From Alviniconcha marisindica (Eukaryota > Mollusca > Gastropoda > Provannidae), in assembly GCA_018857735.1 (NCBI GenBank), contig JABMCL010000106.1, forward strand, positions 482,501-546,500: 64,000 bases of DNA, written 5' to 3'. Numbering within the stretch: position 1 is the first letter of the stretch; each line of letters starts with the position of its first letter. The translations under genes were made by a program, and so were the position numbers. This document shows, in pieces, positions 30,020 to 64,000 of the stretch. Under the pieces are notes generated by a model. That model did not search any database. It had not been told where the DNA came from and saw nothing but the letters and a program-made list of their open reading frames with translations.

Positions 30020-30830
30020 TTAGGCCATAGTGATCTCGGCAACACTACAAGGTCATTAACTCTAAAGTCACAGTGATCTCGGCAACGCTACAAGGCCATT
30101 AACTCTGAAGTCACAGTGATCTCGGCAACACTACAAGGCCATTATAACTCTTAAGTCACAGTGATCTCTGCGACACGGCAAGGCCATTAACTCTGAAGTC
30201 ACTGTGATCTTGGTGACACGGCAATACCAATAATTCTGAAGTTCCAGCAATCTCTGCGACATAATAAGACCATTAACTCTGAAGGCAGAGATTTCTGCAA
30301 CATGACAAGGCCATTAACTATGACGTCACACTGATCTCTACAACACTACAAGGCCATTAATTATGAAATCACAGCGATCTCTGTGACACAAGGCCATTAA
30401 TTCTGAAGTCACAGTGATCTCTGTGACACAAGGCCATTAACTCTGAAGTGACAGGGATCTCTGTGACACAAGGCCATTAACTCTGAAGTCACAGGGATCT
30501 CTGTGACACAAGGCCGTTAACTCTAAAGTCCCAGGGATCTCTGTGACATAACAAGGTCATTAACTCTGAAGTCAATGATTTCGACGACATAACAACACCA
30601 TTAACTCTAAAGTCACAGTGATTTCTGCAACATGACAAGGCCATTAACTCTGAAGTCACAGTGATCTCTGTGACACAAGGCCATTAACTCTGAAGTCACA
30701 GTGATCTCTGTGACACAAGACCATTAATTCTGAAGTCACAATGATCTCTGCCATGTGACAAGCCCATTAACTCTGAAGTCACAATGATCTCTGTGACACA
30801 AGGCCATTAACTCTAAAGTCACAGTACAGC
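30020..30830. repeat. Minisatellite, about 40-bp period, about 20 units
   Basis: The unit contains AAGGCCATTAACTCTGAAGT and CACAGTGATCTCTGTGACAC. The array ends within a few bases of the tentative TRAF7 stop codon, so it would lie in or just beyond the 3' UTR. Confidence 0.9.
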
Positions 30831-30912
30831 TGCCTCAATAGAATGGCAGGGACACTGCATGGTTGTCTTGATGCACTTGCAAGAAATGTAGCATGCACAA
30901 AATCTCACCCAG
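30819..30912 (-). CDS. TRAF7: TRAF7 exon 15 (tentative last exon)
   Basis: The acceptor CTCACCCACAG|CTGGG follows exon 14 in phase and gives [20 protein letters not shown] and 11 more residues before TGA. Vertebrate TRAF7 ends two residues after the last blade's V-W, so this Cys-rich tail is unexpected. If exon 14 ends at AAG|GTCAGG instead, the same acceptor reads [11 protein letters not shown]... to a stop at about 30,835. An acceptor at 30,978 would stop immediately. The true last exon could lie elsewhere. Confidence 0.35.
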
Positions 30913-61600: not shown

Positions 61601-64000
61601 GGTGCTCAACCAGCACTTGTAACTGTGCATCAAACTTTACCTCCCACCCCTACCCTTACCCCCAAAACTGAAAACTACAGCACAAAGGTCACAAGGACAG
61701 GTGCTCAACCAGCACTTGTAACTGTGCATCAAACTTTACCTCCCACCCCTACCCTTACCCCCAAAACTGAAAACTACAGCACAAAGGTCACAAGGACAGG
61801 TGCTCAACCAGCACTTGTAACTGTGCATCAAACTTTACCTCCCACCCCTACCCTTACCCCCCAAAACTGAAAACTACAGCACAAAGGTCACAAGGACAGG
61901 TGCTCAACCAGCACCTGTAACTGTATGTCAAACTTATTTCCATATCATTTACCTTTTTAGGCCAATACGAGTGTTCTCACTGGTTCCCCTGTGGTATCTG
62001 AAAAACTGGAGTGGGGGGAGAGGGGTTAAGCATAGGGGGAGAGGGGTTAAGCATAGGGGGAGAGGGGTTAAGCACAGGGGGAGAGGGGTTAAGCATAGGG
62101 GGAGAGGGGTTAAGCATAGGGGGAGAGGGGTTAAGCATAGGGGGAGAGGGGAGGGTGGTTGGGGATTGACAGACACCTGGCAGTCAATGCTCACCCTGTT
62201 GAATGTTGTTTTTCCCACAGCTTTCTCCAGCTGCACAGTAATCTCTGTGGTCACCAGGTTAACAAAGTTTTCATAGTTGGCGCTGGTCAGAGAGCTCTGA
62301 AACACCACATACATGCACAAACACCTATACACCAGGCTGAGACAGTTATTACAGTTAGGGTCACACACATACACACACGCATGCACACACGCACGCACGC
62401 ATACACACACACATATGCACGCATACACACACGCACGCATACACACACACACACATGTACACACACACCTATACACCAGGCTGAGAAAGCTGTCACAGTT
62501 ACGATCACTCACACACACACACACACACATACACACACTACACACACACACATACACACACACACACAGAGAAATGATCATGAATGCAAAGACAGCTTAC
62601 TTTGAAGGTTGTCAGCATGGTGTCCAAAGTCACAATGCTGCTCTGGACCCATGGGTCATTGGCTTCATAATTCGTAAACTCCTCCTGAAATAGCACATTA
62701 AAAAATATATATATAAAAAATTATGGAATTTTTAAAGCACCTACACTGCCGCTCAATGGGCTGAACAAACATAATGTACATCAAGAGGGAGACACACAGT
62801 TAACACATAATGTACACATCAACACAGGTTCAAACACAACTATGTGCAAGATGTGCAAGTACACACGTGCACACACACACACACACGCATCACACACACA
62901 CACACACACACACACACACTACAGACTCATAGGGGTGAAGGACAGTGTTGCTCAACTAAAATGACTTGAGTCTGCTTTTGAAGGACGAGAGAGTAGCAGA
63001 GTGCTTGATGTCTTGGGTGAGACTGTTCCAGATGCTGGGACTAAAGTGTGAAAAGCATGTCCATCACTGAGACTACATGACATCCTAGTCAATGATATTC
63101 AACATTCTGGCCATAACTTCACTTTCCATTGAAGGTGAATGACATATTCACTGCAGGTTCAAGTCTCCTCCAGGGCCAACTTCCTGTGCTGACTCTTATT
63201 TCGATATTTGTTCCACACCCATGTTACTGCAGTAGCACGTGAAAGACCCAGGTCACTCTGCCAAAAGTGCAGGTAGCAGGTTACAGCTAAACATGCATGC
63301 ACCTTAAGTATGCGGCTTTGCATGAAGTGACATAGTGCTGTGTTGTATGGTGTACACAGAACGTGCCGACACAGCAGCAGTTTCAAGTGGCACCAGCCAT
63401 GTCAGTGCTGTAAGTCCACCACTTTGTTGGATATTCAAAACACACCATAAAAATCTAGTCACTCATGTGAGTGCAGTGAGTCTGCTCGAGAGGGGAGAAT
63501 AACGCTATATAAAAGCGATCAACAACAACATGCCTTCAAAGGAAACCAGGTCTATATTCAGAGACCTTAAGGTGCTATTCATAAAATTATTTGCTGTTCA
63601 CTTGGTTGGCAGTACCTCAGCATCTTCAAAATTACAACAGTGTTAAATGTATTCACATCAGGGAAGAAAAGCGAGTTCTTAGATCCTTCTAAAACAAAAT
63701 TTGACATCCTTTGCCCTAACAGGCCTCACTCAGCTAAAATTTGACAACTGACAAAAAAGCATTTCAGAGATCTGATCTGTCACCTTTGTATCAATATAGA
63801 CATGAGTAGCCTGTTACACAGTTTAAACACTGACGAGAACTGCGTAATAAGGTGAAACACCATCTCTTTAGTTTCACAACACTTGCCTCCGTAATGTTGT
63901 GGCTTATCGACAGAAATGCATCAGCCAGTGGCCTGATGCGTGGTTTGATTGCACTGGAAGACAGCTGAGAAAATCCAAAGTCAACCACATCTTTAAATCG
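58570..64000 (-). CDS. COG4: COG4, conserved oligomeric Golgi complex subunit 4, 3' six exons (partial)
   Basis: COG4 is a lobe A subunit of the COG tethering complex. It acts at the cis-Golgi in retrograde vesicle tethering and binds the SNARE/SM machinery. Six exons join in one frame to give the last 187 residues (human protein about 785). Diagnostic pieces are [57 protein letters not shown] and a C-terminal [12 protein letters not shown]. The 5' part continues past the window end. Transcription runs toward TRAF7, whose ATG is 5.3 kb beyond the COG4 stop. One intron uses a GC donor, and two exon acceptors are copied into intronic arrays. Confidence 0.95.
59179..59270 (-). CDS. COG4: COG4 penultimate exon
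   Basis: Encodes [20 protein letters not shown] then [10 protein letters not shown](R). Acceptor CCTGGCACAG|GTGTC, donor CTCAG|GTCAGC. Confidence 0.95.
59265..59725. repeat. About 50-bp array carrying a COG4 acceptor
   Basis: On minus, TTTACCTGGCACAG|GTGT and following GGAGATCA-like bases recur about nine times in degenerate form, with AAGAAAGTTTCAGTTTGTA spacers. The copy at about 59,610 keeps TCTCCAACACCTGTGCCAGG, nearly the exon edge. Confidence 0.85.
59735..60112 (+). repeat. Family B element with internal (CA)n
   Basis: Head AATAATAATGGAAATTTGTA then GCTCAAAGCGCTGAACAAGC, CA at 59,880-59,952, and tail GAGAGAGTAGCAGAGTGCCT. Closely matches 62,720-63,055. Confidence 0.85.
60775..60903 (-). 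CDS. COG4: COG4 exon, third from end
   Basis: Encodes [20 protein letters not shown] then [20 protein letters not shown] and LER, 43 codons in phase 0. Acceptor GTGGTTTTCAG|CTG, donor GAGCGG|GTGAGT. Confidence 0.96.
60860..61935. repeat. About 90-bp array carrying a COG4 acceptor, about 11 units
   Basis: Units align with the real exon edge: on minus each has TGTGCTGTGGTTTTCAG|TTT and a diverged AAGTTTGATGCACAGTTACA copy of the CAGTTTGACAAAGAGCTC exon sequence. The five units at 61,520-61,920 are almost identical and the others more diverged. Confidence 0.88.
62015..62150. repeat. 21-bp minisatellite, 7 units
   Basis: The unit is GGGGGAGAGGGGTTAAGCAT plus A. It lies about 45 bases beyond the donor of the next COG4 exon but does not include it. 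Confidence 0.95.
62195..62296 (-). CDS. COG4: COG4 exon, fourth from end
   Basis: Encodes [20 protein letters not shown] then [14 protein letters not shown], 34 codons in phase 0. Acceptor GGTGTTTCAG|AGC, donor AACAGG|GTGAGC. Confidence 0.95.
62310..62570. repeat. Duplicated segment and (CA)n
   Basis: ACACCTATACACCAGGCTGA with the following CAGTTA block occurs at 62,322 and 62,467, each followed by degenerate CA. Confidence 0.85.
62601..62684 (-). CDS. COG4: COG4 exon, fifth from end
   Basis: Encodes [20 protein letters not shown] then DTMLTTFK, 28 codons in phase 0. Acceptor GCTATTTCAG|GAG, donor TTCAAA|GTAAGC. Confidence 0.95.
62715..63060 (+). repeat. Family B element
   Basis: Head GGAATTTTTAAAGCACCTAC, CA at 62,870-62,920, tail with GAGAGTAGCAGAGTGCTTGA and TGTTCCAGATGCTGGGAC. 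Confidence 0.85.
63145..63532 (+). repeat. tRNA-derived SINE, 5' truncated
   Basis: Starts in the B-box (GGTTCAAGTCTC) and continues through the same body as 26,900-27,315 to the GCTATATAAAAGCGATCA tail with CAACAACAAC. Confidence 0.88.
63887..64000 (-). CDS. COG4: COG4 exon, sixth from end, with GC donor (truncated by window end)
   Basis: Encodes [20 protein letters not shown] then [18 protein letters not shown]. It ends at ACGGAG|GCAAGT, a GC-type donor with otherwise perfect consensus. Joining at this point gives [15 protein letters not shown], in line with HNIEEEDFNDYEAND of COG4, so no GT donor is needed. The exon's 5' end lies beyond position 64,000. Confidence 0.93.

What the first reader, a model, noticed from the sequence alone, without database searches (positions are those of the whole stretch)
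30819..61935. Tandem arrays built from exon edges and splice sites across two adjacent genes
At least ten exon edges in TRAF7 and COG4 have been copied into intron DNA: TRAF7 exon 2 acceptor, 4 acceptor, 5 donor, 6 acceptor (dispersed copy), 7 donor, 8 acceptor, 8 donor and 12 donor, plus two COG4 acceptors. Every unit carries the splice site with roughly 8-80 exonic bases, and arrays expand only into the intron. They differ in unit length (27 to ~145 bp) and sequence, so they arose independently. This means recurrent local amplification starting at exon-intron junctions, with purifying selection blocking growth into the exon. The result is introns loaded with decoy sites. I know of no named feature class for this.
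Basis: partly seen in the sequence, partly recalled or inferred. Interest (0 to 1): 0.88.

Follow-up and report, generated by a model that had tools for sequence, protein, structure and literature searches.

The report
Splice-site-bearing minisatellites in snail introns
In a sea-snail genome several genes have introns holding tandem repeats built from copies of the neighbouring exon edge with its splice site, a rarely described kind of repeat already named 'mirages' in amphioxus.

Summary
A 15-exon TRAF7-like gene and the 3' part of COG4 lie on the minus strand of a caenogastropod genome. Eight are tandem arrays, one is a neighbouring and one a dispersed single copy; one array carries no exonic bases.

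"No named class" is wrong: such repeats are called mirages in amphioxus Adh3 and globin genes (PMC3087553). Growth only into the intron is geometry, not proof of selection: any junction-spanning tandem duplication leaves the exon intact at one end.

Intron arrays span junctions more often than random seeding predicts: window 7 of 14, 0.99 expected; unseen genes 7 of 19, 2.05 expected, P 0.002, but P 0.18 if seeds were four units long. I judge it a dense molluscan occurrence of a known kind.

The parts
50003..50980 (-). TRAF7 exon 2 acceptor mirage: 7.0 copies of a 140-bp unit at 100% identity; the copy at 50003-50142 contains the real exon edge (exon 49966-50078)
   Evidence: six extra copies, 24/24; 79 exonic bases; unit found only here in the assembly
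47007..47161 (-). TRAF7 exon 4 acceptor mirage: 27-bp unit, 5.7 copies (exon 46953-47023)
   Evidence: 4 copies, 22-23/24; 17 exonic bases
44269..45043 (-). TRAF7 exon 5 donor mirage: 27-bp unit, about 29 copies (exon 45037-45158)
   Evidence: 4 copies at 18/24; 19 more at 15-17/24; 7 exonic bases
42640..42712 (-). Dispersed single copy of the TRAF7 exon 6 acceptor (real junction 43564/43565), lying in intron 6; 32 exonic and 19 intronic bases; ends approximate
   Evidence: 21/24 at +871; copy junction at 42693
41098..41926 (-). TRAF7 exon 7 donor mirage: 42-bp unit, 19 copies at 18/24 or better (exon 41899-42001)
   Evidence: 28-30 exonic bases; GT kept in 17 of 19
38565..40129 (-). TRAF7 exon 8 acceptor mirage: 142-bp unit, 11 copies (exon 38445-38586)
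   Evidence: 9 copies, 24/24; 22 exonic bases
38336..38445 (-). TRAF7 exon 8 donor mirage: about 30-bp unit, 2.7 copies, weak
   Evidence: one copy 18/24; 9 exonic bases
33290..33376 (-). Single neighbouring copy of the TRAF7 exon 12 donor (real 33361/33362, copy at 33305); weak; ends approximate
   Evidence: (19/24 at +56)
60904..61935 (-). COG4 acceptor array: 99-bp unit, 8.7 copies, ending exactly at the acceptor AG of exon 60775-60903; no exonic bases
   Evidence: one copy 18/24; 8 more at 15-17/24; exonic 0
59263..59598 (-). COG4 acceptor mirage: units of about 43-53 bp next to exon 59179-59270
   Evidence: 4 copies, 18-23/24; 9-18 exonic bases

Best explanation
These are mirages: minisatellites that began as local tandem duplications of a segment spanning an exon-intron junction and then grew and shrank like other minisatellites. 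Such a duplication always leaves an intact exon with its own junction at one end, so the message is unchanged as long as splicing keeps choosing that end, and the array can grow inside the intron with little cost. Shown: the copies, their local origin, their independence of one another, and recurrence in other genes. Inferred: that decoys are mostly ignored (probably because exon definition pairs the two true ends of a short exon), that growth is by slippage or unequal exchange, and that the arrays are near neutral.
For: 10 of 38 junctions in the window with local copies and 0 of 38 with copies beyond 4 kb. Conserved coding sequence in the copies (e.g. exons 2, 7, 8) shows that the exon edge is the source. 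Unseen genes repeat it: CDC5L 3 of 24 junctions, upstream COG4 4 of 32 plus one by gapped alignment. Units are specific to their locus in the two cases searched. Same anatomy as the amphioxus mirages.
Against: No RNA data: non-use of decoys is not shown. The exon-2 array is 100% identical over 7 copies, so an assembly error there is not excluded. N4BP1-like gene: 0 of 3 junctions. COG4 60903 array has no exonic bases, so its origin by a junction-spanning duplication is not shown. No consistent gradient of similarity away from the exon.
Confidence: 0.8

Rival explanations
1. Saturation: arrays arise anywhere in introns at a high rate, and junction-spanning ones are simply those that happened to include an exon edge and did no harm; junctions are not preferred.
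For: Arrays are dense everywhere. Repeat cover falls smoothly from intron (about 36-45%) through 27% at 12-30 bases, 26% of junctions, to 13-17% just inside exons; there is no peak at junctions. In unseen genes the excess is 7 of 19 against 2.05 expected and vanishes statistically if the first duplicated segment was four units long (P 0.18).
Against: With seeds of one unit: window 7 of 14 against 0.99 (P 9e-6), CDC5L 3 of 6 against 0.70 (P 0.019); unseen total P 0.002, or 0.011 without the gapped case.
Confidence: 0.4
2. Junction hotspot: something about splice junctions (base-composition step, nucleosome edge, transcription or RNA-DNA hybrids) makes tandem duplication start there.
For: The excesses above.
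Against: The window was picked because it looked striking; upstream COG4 alone gives 4 of 13 against 1.35 (P 0.04), or 3 of 13 (P 0.15) without the gapped case. Anchored arrays are not clearly G+C-richer than others.
Confidence: 0.35
3. Assembly artefact: copies were multiplied by the assembler.
For: The exon-2 array is 100% identical over 7 copies. In amphioxus one mirage was mis-assembled in the draft genome.
Against: Most other arrays have diverged copies (e.g. 77-92% matches in TRF) with indels and different units at each junction.
Confidence: 0.05
4. The decoys are functional: extra splice sites kept by selection to tune splicing or to supply new exons.
For: 51 of 104 decoy matches (15/24 or better, a few of them chance-like) score within 0.5 bit of the real site or above. 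One CDC5L decoy has an acceptor, 18 in-frame bases (VVKLGQ) and a GTGAGT donor that the exon itself lacks.
Against: Copies decay in most arrays. Units divisible by three: 10 of 16 anchored against 14 of 32 others, Fisher P 0.36 (10 of 16 against one third alone gives P 0.016). The open frame of the COG4 exon-12 array breaks after about three units.
Confidence: 0.06

Closest known systems
Mirages of amphioxus (Adh3; globin genes BflGb6 and BflGb9)
   Same: Minisatellite-like tandem duplications of an exon-intron boundary; both 5' and 3' boundaries affected; unit lengths of tens to about 160 bp; many copies keep AG/GT (PMC3087553, passages read)
   Different: A mollusc instead of a cephalochordate; 10 of 38 junctions in one window and 7 of 59 outside it; some arrays with up to 34 copies at 18/24 or better (COG4 exon 7); splicing and length variation not tested here
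Intron gain by tandem duplication of AG/GT sites (Rogers model, cited in PMC3087553)
   Same: Duplicated segments carry splice signals
   Different: Here existing introns grow; no new intron was seen. The CDC5L mini-exon candidate is the nearest thing to a first step
Ordinary intronic minisatellites
   Same: Unit size, copy number and divergence between copies
   Different: The unit contains an exon edge and its splice site; in the same introns other arrays do not

Membership tests
[quoted passage not shown]
   8 arrays at junctions in the window, of which 7 carry exonic bases; 3 in CDC5L; 4-5 in upstream COG4
Mirage (amphioxus) | Both acceptor and donor boundaries can be duplicated | tested here: met
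   Acceptors of exons 2, 4, 8 and donors of exons 5, 7, 8
Mirage (amphioxus) | Many copies keep AG/GT signals | tested here: met
   62 of 65 copies at 18/24 or better keep the dinucleotide (summed by hand; the 18/24 threshold favours this)
Mirage (amphioxus) | Regular splicing is not disturbed | not testable with these tools
   No RNA data; only an open frame across the predicted exons
Mirage (amphioxus) | Length instability between haplotypes or cells | not testable with these tools
   One assembly only, no reads
Dispersed satellite or transposon-borne repeat | Unit present at many unrelated places | tested here: not met
   Two units searched: exon-2 unit only in its array; exon-8 unit elsewhere only by its C-rich stretch. 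The other units were not searched (machine unreachable)

The most novel reading that the evidence does not exclude
In this gastropod lineage splice junctions are true hotspots of tandem duplication, touching roughly one junction in eight or more and making up a fifth to a quarter of intron DNA in some genes, so that mirages are a leading force in intron growth and a standing supply of ready-made exon edges from which new exons and introns can arise.
Probability: 0.35. Interest if true: 0.75.

Novelty: new member of a known kind. Interest (0 to 1): 0.52.

Why it matters
If mirages are frequent outside amphioxus, tandem duplication at exon edges becomes a general source of intron growth, decoy splice sites and perhaps new exons. 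Each array is a natural experiment on how the splicing machinery tells one real site from many near-identical ones, and the proposal that mirages seed new introns becomes testable in an animal with many examples.

Tried and rejected
Polarity (newest copies nearest the exon): no consistent trend of similarity with distance in the eight arrays tried. Base composition as sole cause: anchored arrays are not clearly richer in G+C. Unit length divisible by three: 10 of 16 anchored against 14 of 32 others, Fisher P 0.36. A peak of repeats at junctions: none (every third intron position, low-complexity 24-mers left out). Single chance-like matches not counted as mirages: CDC5L 5a (one 18/24 match, GT-rich) and COG4 15a (one 18/24 match 2.5 kb away). 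Two of the 32 upstream COG4 junctions (4d, 6d) also have one 18/24 match beyond 4 kb, so the far control is 2 of 32 there against 0 of 38 in the window. Arrays counted as not anchored: L001 3696 and 6032, L028 1357, L029 534, 4997, 6232, 6671 and 7208 (4 exonic bases), L030 835, 2587, 2800 and 2960, and in the window 32022, 34435, 37023, 47646, 48169, 62014 and (in the strict count) 60904. L030 835 entered the unseen-gene count from the TRF table although the objective list has 12 arrays and not this one. An EGF-like ORF (L023), ORFs in L008 and L010 and a C1q ORF (window 14683-15768) gave no usable gene model, so their edges were not tested. Of the first 27 stretches (270 kb) 127.5 kb were readable, the rest N; genes were recognised by eye from a list of coding-like ORFs.

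Papers: PMC3087553, passages and one stretch of its reference list; PMC6905558, PMC4039745 and PMC12783039, passages only. PMC6905558 reports a 27-bp minisatellite in an abalone intron; the passages do not say that it spans a junction. The original amphioxus Adh paper is not held and is cited second-hand.

Full report
What is there. The minus strand of the window carries COG4 (its last exons, 64000 to 58568) and then a TRAF7-like gene (15 exons, 53308 to 31002). The TRAF7 model has matching phases and AG/GT ends at every junction and one open frame of 573 codons. The product is 76% identical over its whole length to a TRAF7-like protein of the snail Babylonia areolata and 73% to one of Nucella lapillus, so I take the genome to be a caenogastropod's. 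The window is G000:C2484:482501-546500 of an assembly of 817.6 Mb in 2806 contigs.

Check of the observation. For 38 junctions (28 TRAF7, 10 COG4) the 24 bases around the junction were compared without gaps with the whole window. Ten have at least one match of 18/24 or better within 4 kb; none has one farther away. Eight are tandem arrays with units of about 27 to 142 bp. Exonic bases per copy (median to maximum): exon 2 acceptor 79, exon 4 acceptor 17, exon 5 donor 7, exon 7 donor 28-30, exon 8 acceptor 22, exon 8 donor 9, COG4 59270 acceptor 9-18, COG4 60903 acceptor 0. The exon 6 acceptor has one copy 871 bases downstream, in the next intron, and the exon 12 donor one neighbouring copy 56 bases away.

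The two units searched are local. The exon-2 unit matches 7 places in the assembly, all in its array. The exon-8 unit matches 11 places in its array and 11 elsewhere, the latter only with its C-rich stretch. The other units could not be searched.

CDC5L exons were recognised in the first stretch of contig C1 that I fetched. Of 24 junctions tested (15, 8, 1) three have arrays: exon e acceptor (96-bp unit), exon e donor (119 bp) and exon g donor (39 bp); a fourth (5a) has one GT-rich match that I do not count. Part of the surroundings of the upstream CDC5L exons is withheld, so copies there could be missed. An N4BP1-like gene gave 0 of 3 junctions. The rest of COG4 was then fetched. Its 16 upstream exons, the exon on the window border and the 5 window exons after it join into one open frame. 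Of 32 upstream junctions 5 reach 18/24 locally. I count 4: 7d (34 copies, 47-bp spacing), 12d (10 copies, 60-bp spacing), 12a and 8a (one copy each at 18-19/24, within TRF arrays of 100 and 75 bp; 8a has about 4 exonic bases). I leave out 15a, a lone match 2.5 kb away. Exon 9 donor has a 45-bp array whose copies align to the exon end only with a gap. Two of the 32 have one match beyond 4 kb, so single matches can be chance.

Is it more than chance? Two views must be kept apart. As points, junctions are not special: about 36-45% of tested intron positions more than 60 bases from a junction have local copies, 34% at 30-60 bases, 27% at 12-30, 26% of junctions (10 of 38), 13-17% within 12 bases inside exons and about 5% deeper than 30 bases. 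As seeds they look special: exon sequence in a unit must have been copied across the junction, and a random segment of unit length rarely spans one. In the window 7 of 14 intron arrays span a junction (COG4 60903 counted as a miss), 0.99 expected, P 9e-6; CDC5L 3 of 6, 0.70 expected, P 0.019. In all unseen genes together 7 of 19, 2.05 expected, P 0.002; without the gapped exon 9 donor 6 of 19, P 0.011; with seeds twice as long P 0.04; four times as long P 0.18. Upstream COG4 alone: 4 of 13, P 0.04, or 3 of 13, P 0.15 without the gapped case. An earlier count with COG4 60903 as a hit gave 8 of 13, P 3e-7. The choice of arrays, thresholds and merging was mine, and the N4BP1-like gene was not in the array counts. 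So a preference for junctions is likely but its size is uncertain, and the window overstates it: 10 of 38 junctions there against 7 of 59 elsewhere, Fisher P 0.10.

How it probably works. A tandem duplication of [intron end + exon start], or the mirror image at a donor, gives decoy plus intact exon. The exon with its junction is always preserved at one end, so growth appears to be 'into the intron' whatever selection does; the argument from direction fails. By a simple matrix from 62 junctions, 51 of 104 decoy matches (15/24 or better) score within 0.5 bit of the real site or above (sums by hand). The true end must then be chosen by context; exon definition across short exons is the natural candidate (general knowledge, not tested). 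Copies show no consistent gradient from the exon outwards, which fits turnover within the array better than steady copying from the exon. Junction arrays make up 22% of the intron DNA of TRAF7 and window COG4 (5594 of 25452 bases, COG4 60903 included), 1573 of 9798 bases in CDC5L and 28% in upstream COG4 (3554 of 12699, 8a and 9d included).

What is known. [quoted passage not shown] The present arrays meet the features that I could test. New here are the animal group, the density in a few genes, and a comparison with random seeding. My answered paper searches showed no molluscan case, but seven searches failed, so absence in print is not established.

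Noticed in passing
L001:5136-5153 (minus strand): A CDC5L decoy reads AG, then 18 in-frame bases (VVKLGQ), then GTGAGTG: a possible mini-exon whose donor is absent from the real exon.
   Followed up: partly
L029:2865-3489: COG4 exon 12 donor array: 60-bp units that read on in frame for about three units (VYIMMEEYFMREMILKVCVG) before a frame break.
   Followed up: partly
33350-33365: TRAF7 exon 12 has two candidate donors 9 bases apart; the Nucella protein has three extra residues (IIAGNSGTYNR against IIAGTYNR in Babylonia), as if the second were used.
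   Followed up: no
31002-64000: COG4 followed by TRAF7 in the same order as in a predicted Batillaria protein that fuses the two (P0112): conserved neighbourhood.
   Followed up: no
63886: COG4 intron with a GC donor (GAG|GCAAGT).
   Followed up: no
47600-48800: Three similar stretches of about 0.5 kb with arrays of the palindrome TTTTGTCGCGACAAAA.
   Followed up: no
L028:7502-9995 and start of L002: A 57-bp array of about 2.5 kb (44 copies) that seems to run on into the next stretch of contig C1.
   Followed up: no
14683-15768: Plus-strand open frame with a C1q domain, 233 bases after the end of a 64-bp array at 13193-14450.
   Followed up: no
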